From Neptunomonas japonica DSM 18939 (GTDB lineage: Bacteria; Pseudomonadota; Gammaproteobacteria; Pseudomonadales; Balneatricaceae), in assembly GCF_000422765.1 (NCBI RefSeq), contig NZ_AUGR01000015.1:62001-126000 (forward strand): a DNA stretch of 64,000 bases, given 5' to 3'. Numbering within the stretch: the first letter of the stretch is position 1; each line of letters opens with the position of its first letter. This document shows, piece after piece, positions 36,709 to 45,888 of the stretch. The notes below the pieces were generated by a model that saw only the letters and a program-made list of their open reading frames with translations, ran no database searches and had not been told where the DNA came from. The position numbers were made by a program, and so were the translations under genes.

Positions 36709-37528
36709 ATGGAACAATTAGAATCCTATATTGAACAGGCCAAAGAGTTGGTGCTGGTGTACGGCACACAGTTTTTGATGGCTTTGGCTGTTTTGCTCAT
36801 CGGTCTTTGGGTTATCACTCGTTTTACGCGATTTTTACAAGCCTCTATGTTTAACAAACTGCCAGACCAAACATTGGGTAGTTTCTTAGCCAGTGGCATT
36901 AACATTGTTCTTAAAGTGTTATTGGTTATCAGTGTTGCCTCAATGGTAGGTATTGAAACAACTTCCTTTGTTGCTATTTTAGGGGCGGCAGGATTAGCTG
37001 TTGGTTTGGCGTTACAAGGGAGTTTGTCTAACTTTGCAGGCGGCGTCATGATACTGATTTTTCGCCCCCTTCAAAGTTGGCGACTATCTAGAAGCCCAAT
37101 CGCTGCAAGGGTTTGTTAAAGACATCGGTATCTTTGTAACGACACTAGAAACCTTCGATAAACGTATTGTGGTTATTCCTAATGGCCCTTTAGCCAATGG
37201 GAATTTGATTAACCATACGGCCAGTGATATTCGTGCTGTTGAATCCAGCATTGGTGTGGCATACAGTGATGATATCTACAAAGCTAAAGCGGCTTTGGAA
37301 GCTGTAATTCAACAAGATGAGCGCGTGTTACAGAACGAGGGGAACGTCGTTGCTGTGGTTAACCTTGGTGATAGCTCCATTGACTTTATGGTGCGCGCTT
37401 TTGTAAAAACAGACGATTACAGGGACTTCTATTTTGATATTCTACCTCGCTTGAAAACAGCGGTAGAAGGCGCGGGTTGTAGCATCCCATTTCCTCAGCG
37501 CGATGTGCATCTTTATCAAGATAAATAA
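36709..37528 (+). pseudogene. mscS: MscS-type mechanosensitive channel, frameshifted
   Basis: The first part (to about 37064) encodes the N-terminal helices and the pore-lining TM3 with FVAILGAAGLAVGLALQGSL and SNFAGGVMILIFRP. After the run of five C at 37065-37069 the frame runs into a stop at 37119. The next frame continues exactly where expected: FKVGDYLEAQSLQGFVKDIG, then VTTLETFDKRIVVIPNGPLA and the rest of the beta and C-terminal domains to 37528. Removing one C gives a normal 272-residue channel. Either a sequencing error, a real inactivating mutation or a phase-variable run; the rest shows no decay. Confidence 0.9.
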
Positions 37529-37640: not shown

Positions 37641-37742
37641 ATGCGCTTTAAATGTATATTAATGGTTGTTTTTGCAGCGTTTCTTGCTGGGTGTTCACTT
37701 GTTCCTGACCTACCTGGCCCTATTGGTATTCCTGGTTTATAA
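37641..37742 (+). CDS. Very small lipoprotein (33 residues)
   Basis: An ATG at 37641 follows AGGGAA at a 6-bp spacing. The translation starts MRFKCILMVVFAAFLAGCS, a complete lipoprotein signal with an LAGC lipobox. The mature part is only about 16 residues, with repeated proline-glycine (PDLPGPIGIPG), and ends in TAA. Short Pro-Gly-rich lipoproteins of this sort are frequent and poorly studied. It is separated from mscS by a terminator and lies 144 bp before the ynbA-like gene, so it may belong to either its own unit or the lipid cluster. Confidence 0.72.
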   Translation: MRFKCILMVVFAAFLAGCSLVPDLPGPIGIPGL

Positions 37743-37886
37743 ACTAGGCAGTATTTTAAATATAAAATGGCTAAAAACTAGTTAATAGCATTGATACCTA
37801 GCTGCGCCATTTAGAAAATACACCTTAATAATTGATACCTGCTTTCTTCTTTTATTAAAATAATCTGCTGATTTGAGGTGCATGCC

Positions 37887-38504
37887 TTGTCTATTTATCA
37901 ATTAAAATCCAGCTTCCAGAACTGTTTGCGGCCGAGCGTTAAGTGGCTTTATGCCCGTGGAGTCACGGCGAACCAAGTGACAGTGGCCGCTGTTGTGATT
38001 TCGGTTATGTTGGGCGTGGGGCTATCGATACCCTCTATTCACCCGCTGTGGTTTTTGTTGCTGCCAGTGTGGATGTTTTTGCGTATGGCTTTTAATGCTA
38101 TCGATGGTATGTTGGCGCGTGAATTTAAGCAGCAGTCTGCGCTTGGTGCTTATCTCAATGAGTTGTCTGATGTGGTTGCTGATACTGCTCTTTATCTGCC
38201 TTTTGCATTGTTATTTGGTGTAGAAACTGGTTTGGTTTTAGCGATTGTCTTTCTTGCAGCATTGAGTGAATTTACAGGTGTACTTGGGCTTATGGTTGGC
38301 GCCTCTCGGCGTTATGACGGACCTATGGGCAAAAGTGATCGAGCATTTGTATTTGGATTGCTCGCGATGCTTTGGGCATTCGATATTATCACACCGTTTT
38401 TGGTTAATGCCGCGTTGTTAATTACGTTACTGTTACTGCTTGTCACTATCGTTAATAGGGTTCGATGCGGTTTAACTGAGCGTGCTACTAGCACTAATAA
38501 ATAA
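37887..38504 (+). CDS. ynbA: CDP-alcohol phosphatidyltransferase, YnbA-like
   Basis: 205 residues from the TTG at 37887, which has GAGG 8 bp upstream and gives the family-like start MSIYQLKSSFQNCLRP. A GTG at 37878 overlaps that site. Multi-spanning inner-membrane enzyme with the CDP-alcohol motif DGMLAR-x8-G-x3-N-x3-D. The usual third aspartate is asparagine, as I recall is also true in E. coli YnbA. It joins a CDP-activated lipid to an alcohol; the alcohol is unknown. First of the ynb-like run, 9 bp before the hydrolase-methyltransferase fusion. Confidence 0.85.
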   Translation: MSIYQLKSSFQNCLRPSVKWLYARGVTANQVTVAAVVISVMLGVGLSIPSIHPLWFLLLPVWMFLRMAFNAIDGMLAREFKQQSALGAYLNELSDVVADTALYLPFALLFGVETGLVLAIVFLAALSEFTGVLGLMVGASRRYDGPMGKSDRAFVFGLLAMLWAFDIITPFLVNAALLITLLLLLVTIVNRVRCGLTERATSTNK

Positions 38505-38513
38505 GGATAGTTT

Positions 38514-40340
38514 GTGGAATCATCTTTGCAAGGAACGTCAGATTTAACAGCAACAGATAGGCTTGTTAGTTCGGTGGTCGATGAGGCCGAACTTGCATCT
38601 ATATTGAGCTTTACCACGCATGATGGCGTTGAATTGAAGTATCGCTATTGGCCTGCTAAAAAAGCGGCATCGGGTGTTAAAAAAAGTGTTGTTATGTTTC
38701 ACCGAGGTCACGAGCATAGTGCGCGTATGGCGCACCTAGTGAACGAGTTGGAACTTGATGAATGTGATTTCTTTGCATGGGATGCACGAGGACACGGGAA
38801 TTCTCCAGGGATAAGGGGCAGTAGCCCAAGTTTTGGAACTAGCGTGCGCGATGTTCAAACTTTTTTTGATCATTTGGCTGTGCAGCATAATGTTGATGTT
38901 GAGCAAACTATTGTATTGGCTCAAAGTGTCGGTGCCGTGTTGGCATCAACGTGGGTACATGATTATGCGCCGAATATACGAGCTTTAGTACTAGCGTCGC
39001 CTGCTTTTAGTATCAAGTTATATGTTCCCTTTGCTATTCCTGGTCTACGGGCACTAAGGAAGCTAAAAGGCAATTTTTTTGTTAATAGCTATGTTAAAGC
39101 TAACTTATTAACTCATGACCCAGAGCGTATCGCATCATTTGAAAATGACCCTTTAATAGCACGTGCGATTTCGGTCGATATGTTGCTTGGGCTGCATGAT
39201 GCCGCGAAAAGAGTGGTCGCCGATGCCGCTACTATCACTGTGCCAACACAGTTATTGATATCAGGCTCCGACTGGGTTGTGCGTCGAAACCCTCAGCAGA
39301 AATTCTTTGATCGCTTGGGCTCGGAGTGTAAAGAGCAGCATATTTTGCCGGGCTTCTATCATGATACATTGGGAGAGTTGACGAGGGGGGATACATTGAT
39401 GCGCATTAAGCGTTTTGTTCAATGCTCCTTTTCACAGCCGCACTACGCCAAAGAATTACTTAATGCCGATAAGGTCGGCTATTTTTGTGCTGAAGCTGAA
39501 TCACTCGCTGCGCCGCTTCCTAAAAATTCTCTACAAACCCGCTTTTGGTCTTTTTATCGTGCATCACTGGTATTTAGCAGTCGTTTTTCTGCGGGTATAA
39601 AATTGGGTATTGATACAGGGTTTGATTCTGGGAGTACTCTGGATTATGTCTATCGTAATAAGCCAACAGGTACTAATAAATTTGGTGAGCTCTTAGATAA
39701 AAATTATTTGAACTCAGTCGGTTGGAAGGGTATTCGTCAGCGACGACTGAATTTGGAAGAGTTGCTATCAATCGCTATGGGTAAGCTGCAAGCGCAAAGT
39801 CGAGATGTTAAGTTGGTTGATATAGCGGCAGGCCATGGTCGTTATATTTTATCAGCTATCGAACAGGCCAACGTTAAACCTAAGTCTGTGTTATTACGTG
39901 ACTATAGTGATATTAACGTGAGAGACGGTAACAACCTCATTAAAGAGAAAAACTTGGACTCCATAGTGCAGTTTATTAAAGGTGATGCGTTTGATAAAGC
40001 CGATTTAGCTGCACTAAATCCTCAACCAAATCTAGCCGTTGTTTCTGGGTTATATGAGTTGTTTAGTAGCAATGATATGGTTTCAGCTTCATTAACGGGG
40101 CTGTCTCAAAGCATGGAAGAGGGAGGGTACTTAATTTATACGTGCCAACCTTGGCATCCGCAGTTAATGCTAATTGCGCGAGCACTCACTAGCCACCGTG
40201 AAGGCCAAGCTTGGGTGATGCGTCGCCGTAGTCAAGCTGAGATGGACCAGCTAGTTGCTGCTGCCGGATTTAAAAAGCTAGAGCAGCGCATTGATGAAAT
40301 GGGTATTTTTAGCGTATCAATCGCGCAAAAAGCAGACTAA
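38514..40340 (+). CDS. ynbC: Alpha/beta-hydrolase and SAM-methyltransferase fusion, YnbC-like
   Basis: 608 residues from a GTG with AAGGA upstream. The N-half (about 20-300) is a lysophospholipase-like hydrolase: FHRGHEHSARM, FAWDARGHGNSPG and the nucleophile in LAQSVGA, where alanine replaces the first glycine. The histidine lies in LPGFYHDTLGE. The C-half (about 370-605) is a class I methyltransferase with SAM loop VDIAAGHGRYIL. YIYTCQPWHPQ-like and LTSHREGQAWVMRRRSQAEM match the E. coli YnbC layout as I recall it. Possible lipid deacylation and head-group methylation are inferred. Confidence 0.86.
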   Translation: MESSLQGTSDLTATDRLVSSVVDEAELASILSFTTHDGVELKYRYWPAKKAASGVKKSVVMFHRGHEHSARMAHLVNELELDECDFFAWDARGHGNSPGIRGSSPSFGTSVRDVQTFFDHLAVQHNVDVEQTIVLAQSVGAVLASTWVHDYAPNIRALVLASPAFSIKLYVPFAIPGLRALRKLKGNFFVNSYVKANLLTHDPERIASFENDPLIARAISVDMLLGLHDAAKRVVADAATITVPTQLLISGSDWVVRRNPQQKFFDRLGSECKEQHILPGFYHDTLGELTRGDTLMRIKRFVQCSFSQPHYAKELLNADKVGYFCAEAESLAAPLPKNSLQTRFWSFYRASLVFSSRFSAGIKLGIDTGFDSGSTLDYVYRNKPTGTNKFGELLDKNYLNSVGWKGIRQRRLNLEELLSIAMGKLQAQSRDVKLVDIAAGHGRYILSAIEQANVKPKSVLLRDYSDINVRDGNNLIKEKNLDSIVQFIKGDAFDKADLAALNPQPNLAVVSGLYELFSSNDMVSASLTGLSQSMEEGGYLIYTCQPWHPQLMLIARALTSHREGQAWVMRRRSQAEMDQLVAAAGFKKLEQRIDEMGIFSVSIAQKAD

Positions 40341-40345
40341 GTCGT

Positions 40346-41749
40346 ATGTTTCAATCGCTTCTTTTATTTTGCAAGTCTGTTTTATGGCTAAGAAGTTTGG
40401 CGTGGCTTTCGTTATTAGCGCCTCTCTTCTTTTTGAGTTATAACTTTGCTAATCACTATGCTGCTAGTTTATCTAATGTTGGTAGCGTGGTGTTTAGTTG
40501 GGAGCGTTTTATTCCGCTGTTGCCGTGGACCATCGTCCCTTATTGGTCCATCGACTTACTTTACGGCTTAGCTTTTTTACTACCAAGAGAGCGTAAGCAG
40601 GTTGATACATTAGGTAAGCGCCTGCTCACAGCTCAAGTCGTTTGTATTACATGTTTTTTTATTTGGCCTTTAAGCTTTAGTGTTGAGCGTCCCGAGTTAG
40701 GTGGCCTGTTTGGCTCGATGTTCGATGTCTTAATGGGCTTTGATAAGCCATTTAACCAAGTACCATCTTTACATATCACGCTATTAGTCGTGCTTTGGGC
40801 TTGTTATGGCGCGCGTCTAAGAGGCGTTTGGCGTTGGTTTATGCATGCTTGGTTTGCATTAATTGGGTTGTCGGTATTAACCACATGGCAACATCACTTT
40901 ATTGATCTACCTGCAGGAGTCTTAGCGGGCTTATTTTGTTTGTGGTGCTGGCCAATGGAGCCCTCGAACACTTTAAAACAGCAGGCAAAGCCTCTGTCTC
41001 GCATAGTCCTTCAACGGTGTTGGATATTAGCCTGTTATTACGCATCGGCCAGTATTATTTTAGGGATTATTCTTAGTATCAGTGCCGCATACTTTCTCGG
41101 TATAGCGCTATTGTTGATTTGGCCTTGTATCGCTTTAATGCTTGTCGCTATTAACTATGCTTTTATGGGTGCGAAGGGATTTCAAAAGCAGTCGTCAGGG
41201 CGTCTAAATATTACTGCCACTATCCTCTTTGCTCCCTATTTATTGGGCGCTTGGGTTAATAAAAAGTTTTGGACAAAAGGGCAGAGACCGGCTGCTGAGA
41301 TAGTTGATGGTGTTTGGCTTGGATGTATCCCAGATGCTAGAGAGGCAAAGCAATATGCGGGATTGATGGATATGTGTGCCGAGCTGCCTGTCATCGTACC
41401 TAATGGTTGTGATTATCGTTATATGCCCGTACTTGACCTAACCCCGTTGACTCCTGAGCAGTGTTGGCAAGCGGCGAAAACTATTGATGGCCTCGTTAAT
41501 GCTCATCGTCAGCCTATCTTAGTATTTTGTGCACTAGGTTATTCTCGCAGTAGCGTGGCATTAATGGCGTGGCTGTTGCTGAGTGCGCAGGCGAAAAGCC
41601 CTGAACATGCGAAGTTGATGATAGAAAATGCTCGCCCGCAAGTGGTTATTAAGCCATACCACTTGAAGGCGTTGAGTGAGATGGTGTTGCTGCACGATTG
41701 TCAGTGCTTTTTAAAAGCGTGCCAGCATGCAAAGCCCGTAGTGCTTTAA
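40346..41749 (+). CDS. ynbD: PAP2 phosphatase and protein-tyrosine-phosphatase-like fusion, YnbD-like
   Basis: 467 residues, starting 5 bp after ynbC. The N-terminal membrane part has PAP2 motifs NQVPSLHITL and TTWQHHFIDLPAG, the phosphatidic-acid-phosphatase active site. After more membrane segments, a cytoplasmic C-domain (about 320-460) holds a dual-specificity phosphatase loop, FCALGYSRSSVALMAW, with C-x5-R. Such a domain could remove phosphate from a phosphorylated lipid head group, as PTPMT1 does for phosphatidylglycerophosphate. This reaction is inference. Confidence 0.85.
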   Translation: MFQSLLLFCKSVLWLRSLAWLSLLAPLFFLSYNFANHYAASLSNVGSVVFSWERFIPLLPWTIVPYWSIDLLYGLAFLLPRERKQVDTLGKRLLTAQVVCITCFFIWPLSFSVERPELGGLFGSMFDVLMGFDKPFNQVPSLHITLLVVLWACYGARLRGVWRWFMHAWFALIGLSVLTTWQHHFIDLPAGVLAGLFCLWCWPMEPSNTLKQQAKPLSRIVLQRCWILACYYASASIILGIILSISAAYFLGIALLLIWPCIALMLVAINYAFMGAKGFQKQSSGRLNITATILFAPYLLGAWVNKKFWTKGQRPAAEIVDGVWLGCIPDAREAKQYAGLMDMCAELPVIVPNGCDYRYMPVLDLTPLTPEQCWQAAKTIDGLVNAHRQPILVFCALGYSRSSVALMAWLLLSAQAKSPEHAKLMIENARPQVVIKPYHLKALSEMVLLHDCQCFLKACQHAKPVVL

Positions 41750-41764
41750 TTACAAGGGGAACGG

Positions 41765-42223
41765 ATGAAACAGCAAATGAATTTATTACTCCAAGTTAGC
41801 TTATTAAAGTGTGGAGTCGTTATTGATAGAACTTCATTTGGCTTTACATTATTAAGTGTCGTTATGCTGTTCTTACAGAGCAGTTTATTAATCAATAAAT
41901 TTCAGATGATCGCTTTTTTCATTATTGTGCTCGTCGGCATTATGCAAAAATATTACGCCATCCGGGTGAGTTTGGATGCAGAGCTCTTTGCCCAATTAGC
42001 AAAGGTGATTACAGCGGAACCAAAAAACTGTGAAATTGAGTCTGAACTTCGAGATTTAGACAGTGCAATGCTGCATTTAGGATTAATTAAAACGAATGAA
42101 GATGTTCGTTCATTATTAGATCGCTGTCAGGGGGCATTTAAGTTACTTAAAAGCCAAGTTGCATGCTTCGCAGTACAAAGCATGTTATTGCTAAGTATCT
42201 TATTGGTGCAGGTTATTAAATAA
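41765..42223 (+). CDS. Unknown small membrane protein in the lipid cluster
   Basis: 152 residues with an ATG after AGGGGAACGG. Not recognised. Hydrophobic segments lie at about 22-42 and 46-62 and again at the C-terminus (about 130-150). The central part (70-128) is polar and helical, with paired leucines and acidic residues, and probably cytoplasmic. It sits 15 bp after the ynbD-like gene, so it is in the operon. It has no counterpart in the E. coli ynb cluster that I know of. Confidence 0.65.
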   Translation: MKQQMNLLLQVSLLKCGVVIDRTSFGFTLLSVVMLFLQSSLLINKFQMIAFFIIVLVGIMQKYYAIRVSLDAELFAQLAKVITAEPKNCEIESELRDLDSAMLHLGLIKTNEDVRSLLDRCQGAFKLLKSQVACFAVQSMLLLSILLVQVIK

Positions 42224-42346
42224 CCCCGCGTATGCAACGCTTCGCTTCACTGTTCTACACAGCTTATTTGTAATTATTTAATCTATAATAAACAGACTTG
42301 GCTGGATGTCGATTATGCTCATTTTACAAAGGAAGTGACTTTCTTA

Positions 42347-43282
42347 ATGCTTTTTAATATTCCCCAAAACTCATTCTACACGATGGCGGCAGTCGTCGGT
42401 TTACTTGTGCTAGCTACCGTAATACGGCTGTTTTTAAAGAGTAAGCATCCAGAAACAGATTACACCGAGCTGCGACAACGAATTCAGTCATGGTGGATCA
42501 TGATTGGGTTACTGTTTGTTGTGCTGACAGTGAGTAAAACAGCGGCAGTGGTTTTTTTTGGTTTTTTAAGTTTTCTGGCGCTAAAAGAATTTCTCTCGAT
42601 TGTGCCGACACGTTTAGCTGACCGAAAGGTGATTTTTTGGGCGTATTTGTCCATACCTGTTCAATACTACTGGGTGAGTTCTAGCTGGTACGGGATGTTC
42701 ATAATCTTTATTCCCGTTTATGTTTTTCTATTTCTACCCATGCGTATGGTGCTTACCGGAGATACGAAAGGTTTTATCCGCTCGGCCGGCATTATTCATT
42801 GGGCGACAATGCTCGCCGTTTTTAGTATCAGTCACCTTGCTTTCTTACTGATGCTTCCTGTTCAAAATGAGGAGGCAGGCTTTGTTGGACCTGTATTGTT
42901 TATACTGTTTATGACGCAGTTTAATGATGTGTGCCAGTACGTGTGGGGCAAGCTGCTGGGTAAGCATAAAATCATCCCTAAAGTCAGTCCGAATAAGACA
43001 TGGGAAGGCTTTCTTGGTGGGCTCATTACCATCACGATCTGTGCTGGTCTTGTGGCACCACTATTGACTCCTTTAAGTAACGTACAAGGCCTAATGGCAG
43101 GAGCCTTGATCGGAGCCAGTGGTTTTATCGGAGATGTCGTGATTTCATCGGTTAAACGTGATCTGGATATAAAAGATAGTGGTAATCTTATTCCAGGACA
43201 TGGCGGCATATTGGATCGACTTGATAGCCTGACCTACACTGCTCCGTTGTTTTTCCATTTTTTGTATTACATGTGCTATTAA
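42347..43282 (+). CDS. ynbB: CDP-diglyceride synthase, YnbB-like (CdsA family)
   Basis: 311 residues from the ATG at 42347; a GTG at 42335 is too close to the ribosome-binding site. Multi-spanning inner-membrane phosphatidate cytidylyltransferase. The family signature is complete at the C-end: SVKRDLDIKDSGNLIPGHGG followed by ILDRLDSL. It also has VSPNKTWEGFLGG. It makes CDP-diacylglycerol for the YnbA-like enzyme. A separate housekeeping cdsA would be expected elsewhere in the genome. Confidence 0.88.
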   Translation: MLFNIPQNSFYTMAAVVGLLVLATVIRLFLKSKHPETDYTELRQRIQSWWIMIGLLFVVLTVSKTAAVVFFGFLSFLALKEFLSIVPTRLADRKVIFWAYLSIPVQYYWVSSSWYGMFIIFIPVYVFLFLPMRMVLTGDTKGFIRSAGIIHWATMLAVFSISHLAFLLMLPVQNEEAGFVGPVLFILFMTQFNDVCQYVWGKLLGKHKIIPKVSPNKTWEGFLGGLITITICAGLVAPLLTPLSNVQGLMAGALIGASGFIGDVVISSVKRDLDIKDSGNLIPGHGGILDRLDSLTYTAPLFFHFLYYMCY

Positions 43283-43284
43283 CT

Positions 43285-43935
43285 ATGAATCGAGTCATGA
43301 AAGTTTTGTTTTTTGGCCTGATTGTTAAGCCAGTTGTGTTGATTGTGCTTGGGATCAACTTAAGAAATCGAGAAAAATTGCCTATGTCTGGGCCTGCTAT
43401 TATTGTCGCGAACCATAATAGCCACTTAGACACACTAGTCTTAATGAGCTTATACCCGCTTTCTATGATTCATAAAGTGCGGCCTGTGGCTGCTGCTGAT
43501 TACTTTTTAGGAGGTGGCGGTTTTCTAGCATGGTTGTCACTTGCATGTATTGGCATTATAGCGATGGATAGAAGCGGACAGTCTGCCAGAGGTAGTTTAT
43601 TTGAAGGGTGTCACCAAGCGTTAGATAACGACGATATTCTAATCTTGTTCCCAGAGGGCAGTCGAGGAAAACCCGAAGAGATGAGCACGCTGAAAAAAGG
43701 TGTGTATTTCATCATTAAAGATCGGCCCAACACCTCTGTAACGCCAGTTATGATGCATGGTTTAGGCCGTTCTTTACCCAAGGGTGAAGTGTTATTAGTA
43801 CCGTTTAACTGTGATGTTGTTGTGGGTGATAGAGTATCCGTAACAGATAATTCATCGTCTTATGTGGCCACGATATCCGAGCAGTTTGAGCAATTGTCCG
43901 AACATTGCCTAACTAAAAACGAGAACGCACAATAA
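43285..43935 (+). CDS. 1-acyl-glycerol-3-phosphate acyltransferase, PlsC family
   Basis: 216 residues from the ATG at 43285, 2 bp after the ynbB stop, so probably translated by coupling since no good site is seen. Motifs are NHNSHLD (H-x4-D catalytic pair), the arginine region GIIAMDRSGQSARGS, and FPEGSRGKPEEMSTLKKG, the substrate-binding block. It would add the second acyl chain to make phosphatidate for the CdsA-like enzyme. Last gene of the ynb-like cluster. Confidence 0.88.
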   Translation: MNRVMKVLFFGLIVKPVVLIVLGINLRNREKLPMSGPAIIVANHNSHLDTLVLMSLYPLSMIHKVRPVAAADYFLGGGGFLAWLSLACIGIIAMDRSGQSARGSLFEGCHQALDNDDILILFPEGSRGKPEEMSTLKKGVYFIIKDRPNTSVTPVMMHGLGRSLPKGEVLLVPFNCDVVVGDRVSVTDNSSSYVATISEQFEQLSEHCLTKNENAQ

Positions 43936-44006: not shown

Positions 44007-44282
44007 GTGCCAAAAATAGTATTAAAAGGTTTTATCCTCGTCCCGTCGAAAGACTTACCTGCGGTACAGAGTGAGATTGTTAATCATAAGAACCTGACTC
44101 TTAGAGAGCCCGGGTGTTTGGTATTCGAGGTAACTCAAGCCAAAGAGAACCCTTGCCGGTTTGATGTTTATGAAGAGTTCATTGATAACGCGGCATTTGA
44201 CATGCACCAAGAAAGAGTAAAAAGTTCTCTCTGGGGTAAGGTATCAAAGAATGTCGAAAGGCATTATGAAATATTTGTGTAA
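44007..44282 (+). CDS. Antibiotic-biosynthesis-monooxygenase (ABM) domain protein
   Basis: 91 residues from a GTG with GGAG upstream. A single ABM or YgiN-like ferredoxin-fold domain is seen: EPGCLVFEVTQ, FDVYEEFIDNAAFDMHQE. Small proteins of this family act as quinol monooxygenases or haem-degrading enzymes or have no known activity. The monocistronic setting gives no clue. Confidence 0.8.
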   Translation: MPKIVLKGFILVPSKDLPAVQSEIVNHKNLTLREPGCLVFEVTQAKENPCRFDVYEEFIDNAAFDMHQERVKSSLWGKVSKNVERHYEIFV

Positions 44283-45156: not shown

Positions 45157-45888
45157 ATGTTTAAGGGAATATTATTTTTATTGCTGTGTTCAATATCAAT
45201 GTTCTCAAACGCTTATGTTATTAGCGGAGAAAAGTGGGGAGATCCTGCGTTTGGTACGGGTGCTATTATTAGTTGGAGCTATATGGATACAGGGCTTAGC
45301 TGCAATGGAACCTATGAGTCTATTGGGTGTAGTGTAACTTCATTAGCTGATTTTATGCCGCTGGGTTTTGAAAGTGAAATTTCACGCTCCTTCGATGCGT
45401 GGTCTGACATCGCTGGCCTAACCTTTATACAAGTACCTGATAGTGGTGATGCGTTTAATGTGTCAGGGGCTTCAGGAGATATACGTCTCGGAGGGCACTC
45501 TTTTGATGGGGCCGGTGGTATTTTGGCGCATGGTTATCTTCCTGAACCGGGCAGCTCTTCAGCGGGGGACATCCATTTTGATTCAGGTGACTTGTGGACG
45601 ACCAATGTTGGCACGCCAGGTTTTGATATTTTCCAAGTATTTACTCATGAGCTAGGCCATGCCTTAGGCTTAGATCATACTAACGTTCCTCACTCACTGA
45701 TGAACCCTTATTATACGGAAGCTTTTTCTGGCCCCCAAGCAGATGACTTTGCAGGGATTCAGTATCTTTACGGGCTTCCAGCCGCAGGTAATGAGGTTCC
45801 TGAACCTGCTTCAATTTTCTTATTGGTGATAGGTCTTTTGGGCTTGGTCGTGGTTAGAAAGCAATACAGGGCCGCCTCTGGTGCTTAA
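45157..45888 (+). CDS. Secreted matrixin-like zinc metalloprotease with PEP-CTERM signal
   Basis: 243 residues with an N-terminal signal peptide (cleavage after SNA). The catalytic motif THELGHALGLDHTNVPHSLM has H-E-x2-H-x2-G-x2-H and a following Met-turn, as in metzincin matrixins. The C-terminus has a PEP-CTERM sorting signal: VPEPASIFLLVIGLLGLVVV then basic RKQYR. Exosortase would cleave this tail and hand the protein to the cell surface or matrix. No exosortase gene lies in the window. Its stop overlaps the next gene by 8 bp. Confidence 0.88.
   Translation: MFKGILFLLLCSISMFSNAYVISGEKWGDPAFGTGAIISWSYMDTGLSCNGTYESIGCSVTSLADFMPLGFESEISRSFDAWSDIAGLTFIQVPDSGDAFNVSGASGDIRLGGHSFDGAGGILAHGYLPEPGSSSAGDIHFDSGDLWTTNVGTPGFDIFQVFTHELGHALGLDHTNVPHSLMNPYYTEAFSGPQADDFAGIQYLYGLPAAGNEVPEPASIFLLVIGLLGLVVVRKQYRAASGA

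What the first reader, a model, noticed from the sequence alone, without database searches (positions are those of the whole stretch)
37641..43935. Complete ynb-like phospholipid module of unknown product
Seen: six plus-strand genes packed within 6 kb encode a PlsC acyltransferase, CDP-diglyceride synthase, CDP-alcohol phosphatidyltransferase, hydrolase-methyltransferase fusion, PAP2-tyrosine-phosphatase fusion and an unknown membrane protein. Most gaps are 2-15 bp; the one before ynbB is 123 bp. Known: the four ynb-type proteins match the E. coli ynbABCD layout, to my knowledge without an assigned product. Inference: acyltransfer, CDP activation, head-group transfer, dephosphorylation and methylation or deacylation form a full path to a distinct lipid. 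The extra PlsC and membrane protein go beyond the E. coli set and may complete or transport it.
Basis: partly seen in the sequence, partly recalled or inferred. Interest (0 to 1): 0.82.

Follow-up and report, generated by a model that had tools for sequence, protein, structure and literature searches.

The report
Arc1-type membrane lipid defence operon
This is a six-gene membrane-lipid operon of the kind that helps Pseudomonas aeruginosa survive lipid-cutting toxins from rival bacteria; its lipid product is still unknown, one of its enzymes carries unusual metal-site changes, and here its last two genes come from another branch of the family.

Summary
The six genes are real: CDP-alcohol transferase (A), hydrolase-methyltransferase (C), PAP2-phosphatase (D), membrane protein (X), CdsA-like enzyme (B), PlsC-like acyltransferase (P), 37878-43935. 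Of 80 named loci (77 Pseudomonas), 45 read A-C-D-X-P-B and 14 the same plus an extra P-like gene. This is P. aeruginosa PA2541-PA2536, published as arc1A-F: Gac/Rsm-induced, protective against T6SS attack and, in 2025 data, lipase effectors. PlsC and X are thus usual parts, which E. coli K-12 ynbABCD lacks. Neither arc1 paper's held text contains "ynb". The product is unknown.

New here: A has Asn at two of four metal-binding Asp in 108 of 108 loci; 31 of 31 ordinary relatives have Asp. B lacks an Asp described as essential in 100 of 102 loci; the window and E. coli keep it. In 398 genomes the genes are nested (X within D within C within A), and A-P-B operons without C, D, X exist. Window A and C group with Motilimonas/Vibrio genes, but B and P belong to another lineage, joined at the 123-nt gap. 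Best reading: a specialised phospholipid pathway hardening membranes against phospholipases. No structure could be predicted.

The parts
37878..38504 (+). A: CDP-alcohol phosphatidyltransferase-like protein (YnbA / Arc1A); likely true start TTG 37887; signature NxxDGxxARx8GxxxNxxxD (N73, D76, N94, D98)
   Evidence: nearest relatives Motilimonas/Vibrio
38514..40340 (+). C: monoacylglycerol-lipase-like alpha/beta hydrolase fused to a methyltransferase (YnbC; second arc1 gene); S138, D253, H283 invariant in 14 aligned relatives (roles inferred)
40346..41749 (+). D: PAP2_3-type membrane domain fused to a dual-specificity (CX5R) phosphatase domain (YnbD; third arc1 gene)
41765..42223 (+). X: 152-aa hydrophobic protein with no Pfam family; in 398 genomes found in 22, all with D and directly beside D
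42224..42346 (+). 123-nt spacer; coincides with the seam between the arc1-type A-C-D-X part and the B-P pair of another lineage
42335..43282 (+). B: CdsA/YnbB-like cytidylyltransferase of the 'GD' lineage, with all three checked active-site Asp; ATG 42347 possible start
43273..43935 (+). P: PlsC-like acyltransferase with NHxSxxD and FPEGxR motifs; nearest to P of L186 and of A-B-P operons; ATG 43285 possible start

Best explanation
The locus is an Arc1/Ynb-type operon. Shown by sequence: six genes of the arc1A-F families, in arc1 order except that B and P are swapped and come from another lineage. Inferred: P makes or repairs phosphatidic acid, B activates it to a CDP-lipid, and A transfers the phosphatidyl group to a small acceptor that probably carries a phosphate (A is most like phosphatidylinositol-phosphate synthases and aligns with their two acceptor-phosphate arginines). 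D removes phosphate or exchanges the head group, C methylates and/or deacylates the product, and X assists D. The resulting minor phospholipid, or the altered acyl pattern, makes the membrane a poorer substrate for phospholipases, so the operon acts as an inducible membrane defence. The chemistry of A is probably non-standard, because two of its four metal-binding aspartates are asparagine.
For: Named loci: 45 of 80 read A C D X P B, 14 more P A C D X P B. L143 carries the published PA2541 primer site (1 of 25 genomes of the genus searched); the site places the start of its A, whose protein ends in QA as the primer implies, and all six genes lie in order. arc1A-F: five of six genes predicted for phospholipid metabolism, Gac/Rsm-induced, mainly defensive (PMC8926400); arc1A needed for full lipase resistance (PMC12663445). 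Motifs: A N,N,D in 108 of 108 loci; D CX5R in 106 of 106; C xQSxG in 108 of 109. PIPS acceptor arginines R155 and R195 (PMC4634129) align with invariant R155 and R194 of A. YnbB makes CDP-DAG in vitro (review PMC7018664). YnbD does not replace PGP or C55-PP phosphatases (PMC7413402), so its substrate is probably something else. The replacement of B and P together by a related B-P pair suggests that both activities are needed.
Against: No product lipid is known, and the order of steps is inferred from families only. A has Asn at two of four metal-ligand Asp, and most B proteins (not the window's) lack an Asp described as essential, so either may not do the textbook reaction. Eight A-B-P operons without C, D and X were seen, so C and D are not obligatory; A also occurs in loci where no B and P were called (L051, L052, L057; L183). 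In the 2025 paper arc1A is auxiliary beside arc3A: the strain lacking tssM1, arc1A, arc3A and aas was no more sensitive to V. cholerae than the one lacking tssM1 and arc3A. In the 2022 paper no single tested effector explained the arc1 phenotype, only one arc1 gene passed the threshold in the Tle3 screen and one in the ColA screen, and arc1 loss also modestly raised survival of the attacker. The window's host was not tested, and its regulation is unknown. The R155 match depends on the alignment: HMMER places it one residue off, MAFFT in register.
Confidence: 0.55

Rival explanations
1. Repair and clean-up path: the operon removes the products of lipases rather than making a special lipid. The monoacylglycerol-lipase-like domain of C destroys or trims lysolipids, P re-acylates lysophosphatidic acid, and B and A return the recovered lipid to the phospholipid pool.
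For: C's hydrolase domain is most like monoacylglycerol lipases among solved structures, with S138, D253 and H283 invariant in 14 relatives; the window's P has the acyltransferase motifs; arc1A acts in the same lipase setting as arc3A and aas.
Against: It does not explain the methyltransferase, the phosphatase fusion, the dedicated A with a distinct signature, or A-B-P operons that lack the hydrolase.
Confidence: 0.25
2. A and B are no longer enzymes but CDP-lipid-binding scaffolds or sensors; only P, C and D are catalytic.
For: D1 and D3 are Asn in 108 of 108 A loci, whereas 31 of 31 ordinary CDP-alcohol transferase loci have four Asp; the Asp219 position is Gly in 100 of 102 B loci, and that Asp belongs to a dyad described as essential for activity (PMC7018664).
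Against: The other signature residues of A (D2, G1, AR, G2, D4) are present in 108 of 108 loci; B keeps the KR, KD and HGGxxDRxD motifs in 102 of 102; the window's and E. coli's B keep all three Asp checked; YnbB makes CDP-DAG in vitro (review).
Confidence: 0.12
3. Back-up supply for MPIase, the glycolipid that helps insert membrane proteins, as proposed for E. coli YnbB.
For: YnbB overproduction raises or restores MPIase but does not complement a cdsA deletion (PMC6362211; PMC7018664).
Against: The ynbB deletion does not significantly change MPIase; B mostly stands with A and P, and often C, D and X; the arc1 phenotype is sensitivity to T6SS attack.
Confidence: 0.06

Closest known systems
arc1A-F (PA2541-PA2536) of Pseudomonas aeruginosa
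   Same: Same six gene families; A, C, D, X in the same order; A, C and D 57, 66 and 50% identical to L143.
   Different: In the window B precedes P, and both belong to another lineage (40 and 31% identical to L143; trees). The window's B keeps the Asp that is Gly in 100 of 102 B loci. Regulation and defence role in the window's host are untested.
ynbABCD of Escherichia coli K-12 (L003)
   Same: Four shared families (A, B, C, D); same A signature; same Asp-retaining B clade.
   Different: K-12 has order A-B-C-D and lacks X and P. Its A and C branch apart from the window's.
Three-gene operons of A, B and P without C, D, X (L174-L181)
   Same: A carries the same Asn/Asn signature. B of L176-L181 and P of L176-L178, L180 and L181 fall with the window's B and P (the P clade is weakly supported, 94/84).
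   Different: No hydrolase-methyltransferase, PAP2-phosphatase or X beside A. B and P of L174 and L175 are of the Pseudomonas kind. L179's P is of uncertain place.
L186 (G098): B-P pair beside a sister-clade A
   Same: Closest B (66%) and P (56%) to the window's in this set.
   Different: Its A is of the sister clade, and no C, D or X was seen.
Phosphatidylinositol-phosphate synthases (6h53, 6wm5, 5d92)
   Same: Best solved-structure matches of A (6h53, E 2.4e-10); acceptor-phosphate arginines align.
   Different: A has Asn instead of Asp at D1 and D3, and scores 40.9 bits against the NCBIfam PIP synthase model (cut-off 170) and 55.4 against the archaeal one (cut-off 180).

Membership tests
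Arc1 (arc1A-F) operon | All six gene families together on one strand | tested here: met
Arc1 (arc1A-F) operon | Gene order A-C-D-X-P-B | tested here: not met
   window order is A-C-D-X-B-P; L143 and 45 of 80 named loci read A C D X P B
Arc1 (arc1A-F) operon | B and P orthologous to arc1F and arc1E | tested here: not met
   window B and P pair with L186 (G098), 100/99 support each, apart from L143; so filed as an Arc1-type variant, not as arc1 itself
Arc1 (arc1A-F) operon | Gac/Rsm control and defence against T6SS attack | not testable with these tools
   reported for P. aeruginosa (PMC8926400, PMC12663445; passages)
Canonical CDP-alcohol phosphatidyltransferase | D1xxD2G1xxAR...G2xxxD3xxxD4 with four Asp | tested here: not met
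   D1 and D3 are Asn in the window and in 108 of 108 loci; control 31 of 31 with four Asp
Phosphatidylinositol-phosphate synthase | Score above the NCBIfam equivalog cut-off | tested here: not met
   40.9 bits against 170
CdsA-type cytidylyltransferase | CTP_transf_1 profile and Asp219, Asp246, Asp249 (TmCdsA numbers inferred) | tested here: met
   PF01148 234 bits; window B has Asp at all three
Dual-specificity phosphatase | CX5R active-site loop and upstream acid Asp | tested here: met
   C395, R401 and D364 invariant in 16 aligned relatives; CX5R in 106 of 106
PAP2_3 (Aur1/Ipt1-like, label recalled) | Score above the Pfam gathering cut-off | tested here: inconclusive
   window 21.8 bits against 27; 13 of 16 match PAP2_3 and 10 of 16 PAP2 at E 0.01

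The most novel reading that the evidence does not exclude
A and its sister clade form an unrecognised branch of the CDP-alcohol transferases with an Asn/Asn active site, usually found beside a CdsA-like and a PlsC-like partner. Together they carry out a reaction not yet known for this superfamily (fewer or weaker metal contacts, a phosphate-bearing acceptor), giving a new class of phospholipid. The C-D-X add-on tailors it into a phospholipase-resistant lipid, so bacteria would armour their own membrane chemically against rivals' toxins. In the window a B-P pair from another lineage has taken over the supply steps.
Probability: 0.25. Interest if true: 0.85.

Novelty: new variant of a known kind. 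Interest (0 to 1): 0.55.

Why it matters
Two open questions meet here: the missing function of E. coli ynbABCD and the missing chemistry of Pseudomonas arc1. Seeing them as one family gives E. coli workers a phenotype to test and Pseudomonas workers a tractable laboratory host. The Asn/Asn signature of A and the Asp/Gly switch of B give a concrete, testable reason to expect unusual lipid chemistry.

Tried and rejected
Considered and rejected: (a) PlsC and X as add-ons special to this genome: rejected, they stand in the commonest gene orders. (b) An archaeal or inositol-phosphate lipid synthase proper: scores far below the equivalog cut-offs. (c) An anti-phage defence system: no PADLOC match at E 0.001 for any of the six proteins. 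(d) X as a member of a described Pfam family: only chance-level hits, best E 0.02, each for one of 13 members. (e) A recent foreign island by base composition: GC of A, C, D, B and P is 42.5-45% against 44% for the window; X is lower, 35.5%. (f) A clear internal promoter or terminator in the 123-nt gap: the plus-strand scan shows none there, and promoter-like hits in the region are no more frequent than in shuffles (12 against 13.9). (g) Papers naming ynbABCD, ynbABC, ynbCD, Methyltransf_20 or PF12147: none in the library.

Motif counts are over 109 loci including near-copies: 106 of 108 A and 85 of 102 B are distinct. In one search only the best-scoring P per locus was kept; in some Pseudomonas loci this picked another PlsC-like gene upstream (four such rows stand apart in the tree), so I draw nothing from the P counts, in which 21 of 102 lacked NHxSxxD. 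In one search the E <= 1e-10 list has 49 genomes; I used the 37 with E below 1e-45 as family A. Six of the other twelve were fetched and form the sister clade (L184-L189); six were not looked at. In one search, 27 genomes passed; G350 matched the PAP2 part only and was dropped, leaving 26. In some searches only some first-look candidates per genome were scored, so diverged copies may be missed. The Fisher values ignore kinship. The control used 29 of the matches (those given as loci, mostly the best-scoring) plus L060 and L059; weaker matches were not checked, and the motif with most Asp per locus was taken. Two loci without a match were read by eye (AK instead of AR, all four Asp). The B pattern missed L177 and L186, read: both have Asp. 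The trees used chosen loci: 26 of 109 plus L174-L189 for B and P, with L182 B and L063 P dropped as too short; 30 of 109, plus 15 for A, which warned of long branches around L183 and the sister clade. D and X were not put in trees; D was placed by BLAST (best 66.5% to Motilimonas L062).
Full report
What is there. The window carries six plus-strand genes in 6.1 kb: A, a CDP-alcohol phosphatidyltransferase-like protein (37878-38504); C, an alpha/beta hydrolase fused to a methyltransferase (38514-40340); D, a PAP2-type membrane domain fused to a dual-specificity phosphatase (40346-41749); X, a 152-aa hydrophobic protein (41765-42223); B, a CdsA-like cytidylyltransferase (42335-43282); and P, a PlsC-like acyltransferase (43273-43935). 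Relatives of A start at or near the position of TTG 37887.

It is a conserved module. In 398 genomes drawn from the phylum, PF12147, the family of C's methyltransferase part, occurs in 27, A at E below 1e-45 in 37, full-length D in 26 and X in 22. The sets are strictly nested: every X genome has D, every D genome has C, every C genome has A. Among 80 named loci found with C, 45 read A C D X P B, 14 read P A C D X P B with a further PlsC-like gene in front, and the other 21 are partial or lack a called gene. Some of those 21 are cut by contig ends, and in GC-rich loci a gene may have been missed. Ten of the 37 A genomes lack C. I fetched all ten: in eight (L174-L181) A stands beside B and P, without C, D or X; in L182 A and B are short frames; in L183 a diverged A stands without them. 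In four loci with C the picture also differs: no B and P were called near A in L051, L052 and L057, and in G204 D and X lie together about 40 kb from the A-C-P-B part. So there is an A-P-B core, and C, then D, then X, seem to be added to it.

It is the arc1 operon type. P. aeruginosa PA2541-PA2536 was named arc1A-F, antagonism resistance cluster 1, in PMC8926400 (abstract, passages and the first of three parts of the Results seen). It is induced through Gac/Rsm; five of its six genes are predicted to act in phospholipid biosynthesis or metabolism; its loss lowers survival under T6SS attack by B. thailandensis but not under heat, peroxide, salt or detergent; no single tested effector accounts for it, one arc1 gene passed the threshold in the Tle3 screen and one in the ColA screen, and its loss also modestly raised the attacker's survival. 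PMC12663445 (passages) reports that arc1A, with arc3A and aas, is needed for full resistance to lipase effectors of A. baylyi and V. cholerae; the strain lacking tssM1, arc1A, arc3A and aas was no more sensitive to V. cholerae than the one lacking tssM1 and arc3A, hence an auxiliary role. To tie this to sequence I searched a 21-base stretch derived from the published PA2541 deletion primers in 25 genomes of that genus: one matches. The site places the start of its A, whose protein ends in QA as the primer implies, and the six genes follow in the order A-C-D-X-P-B. Neither paper's held main text contains 'ynb'. My searches for ynb names (the lists were capped at 30 of 96 and 40 of 91) showed no title or abstract start linking the two systems; I did not read most of the listed papers.

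What is known of the E. coli form. K-12 has ynbA-ynbB-ynbC-ynbD without X and P. YnbB overproduction raises MPIase and does not complement a cdsA deletion; the ynbB deletion does not significantly change MPIase (PMC6362211, passages). A review (PMC7018664, passages) states that YnbB makes CDP-DAG in vitro. YnbD does not replace PGP or C55-PP phosphatases (PMC7413402, passages). ynbB was not needed for phosphoglyceride-linked ECA (PMC8609368, passages). A 2025 paper cites activation of ynbA by BglJ-RcsB (PMC12871917, passages). In one genome of the class (L179) an A-B-P operon lies beside ORFs whose lengths and starts fit azoR and hrpA (names by comparison with K-12), the neighbours of ynbABCD in K-12. 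This suggests that P was once part of the K-12 locus; for X there is no such hint.

The odd active sites. [quoted passage not shown] tuberculosis PgsA1 all four Asp hold a two-metal site (PMC6506517, passages). In A, D1 and D3 are Asn in 108 of 108 loci, which all keep D2, G1, AR, G2 and D4 (106 distinct proteins). As a control, 31 loci of ordinary members, two of them the window genome's own, all have four Asp. Of the ten A proteins without C, nine match the Asn/Asn motif; the tenth, L183, has Ala at D1, Asn at D3 and no signature Arg. Six sister-clade proteins (L184-L189) also have Asn at D1 and D3 (read), with Ile, Val or Met for the signature Arg; in five (not L188) B- and P-like genes lie beside them. 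In B, the position of TmCdsA Asp219 is Gly in 100 of 102 loci and Asp only in the window and E. coli K-12. The number 219 rests on the alignment with an assumed 20-residue tag offset; this Asp is described as part of a cation-binding dyad essential for activity. Outside that set Asp is found in L176-L181, L186 and Vibrio sinus, and Gly in L174, L175, L182, L184, L185, L187 and L189. I read this as altered chemistry, not proof of inactivity. A aligns with the two arginines that bind inositol phosphate in PIP synthases (R155 and R195), which fits a phosphate-bearing acceptor and a following phosphatase; the HMMER alignment puts the first of these one residue off.

The window is a mosaic. Its A and C group with Motilimonas and Vibrio sinus (A 100/98, C 100/100 support), and its D is closest to Motilimonas by BLAST (66.5%). 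Its B and P pair with L186 of G098 (100/99 each); identities are 66% and 56% against 40% and 31% to L143. The B clade that holds them (100/100) also contains E. coli and six A-B-P operons; the P clade is weaker (94/84). The A of L186 is of the sister clade, so B-P pairs seem to move between kinds of A. The seam falls at the only long gap, 42224-42346. Vibrio sinus has A-C-D followed by a shortened X and transposase-like ORFs (by look), then a P fragment 47% identical to the window's on the other strand at the end of the stretch. A B 66% identical to the window's lies just beyond, apparently on the same contig. So the window-type pair is not unique to this genome. Motilimonas eburnea keeps the usual A C D X P B order with a Gly-type B.

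How it most likely works. P, B and A build a dedicated phospholipid; D dephosphorylates or exchanges its head group; C methylates and/or deacylates it; X supports D. The lipid or the altered acyl pattern makes the membrane harder for phospholipases to damage. Shown: gene families, conservation, mosaic origin, residue changes, and, in P. aeruginosa and by others, protection against T6SS attack including lipase effectors. Inferred: every chemical step, their order, and the same role in this host. Confidence 0.55. The main rival is lysolipid repair (0.25).

Verdict. The module itself is already known as arc1, so its existence is not new. The union of ynb and arc1, the active-site changes, the nested build-up and the exchanged B-P pair are the points of interest. 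Interest 0.55; a new variant of a known kind.

Noticed in passing
window 36709-37119 and 37169-37528: An MscS-type channel gene is split over two reading frames (Pfam MS_channel_1st in the first part, MS_channel_3rd in the second): a frameshifted gene or a sequencing error.
   Followed up: no
window 37641-37742: A 33-aa ORF with a lipoprotein-like signal (LAGC) lies before A; not found within 500 nt upstream of A in L062, L063, L064 or L143.
   Followed up: partly
L143:1368-6769 and L179:8545-11703: Large envelope-type proteins lie beside the operon: 579-aa and 1221-aa ORFs (TamA/TamB by recall) before A in the P. aeruginosa-type locus, and 879-, 63- and 107-aa ORFs (YdbH, YnbE, YdbL by recall) in L179. 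Both would be lipid-transport neighbours.
   Followed up: no
L184-L189: A sister clade of CDP-alcohol transferases has Asn at D1 and D3 and Ile, Val or Met in place of the signature Arg; in five of six, B- and P-like genes lie beside it: possibly a second lipid pathway of the same kind.
   Followed up: partly
L055:7208-9361: A 717-aa ORF lies between C and D in this operon (G391); not identified.
   Followed up: no
window 44007-44282: A small ABM-type (antibiotic biosynthesis monooxygenase) protein lies 71 nt after P.
   Followed up: no
window 45157-45888: A metalloprotease-like protein (HELGHALGLDH motif) with a C-terminal PEP-hydrophobic sorting-like tail, read from the sequence.
   Followed up: no
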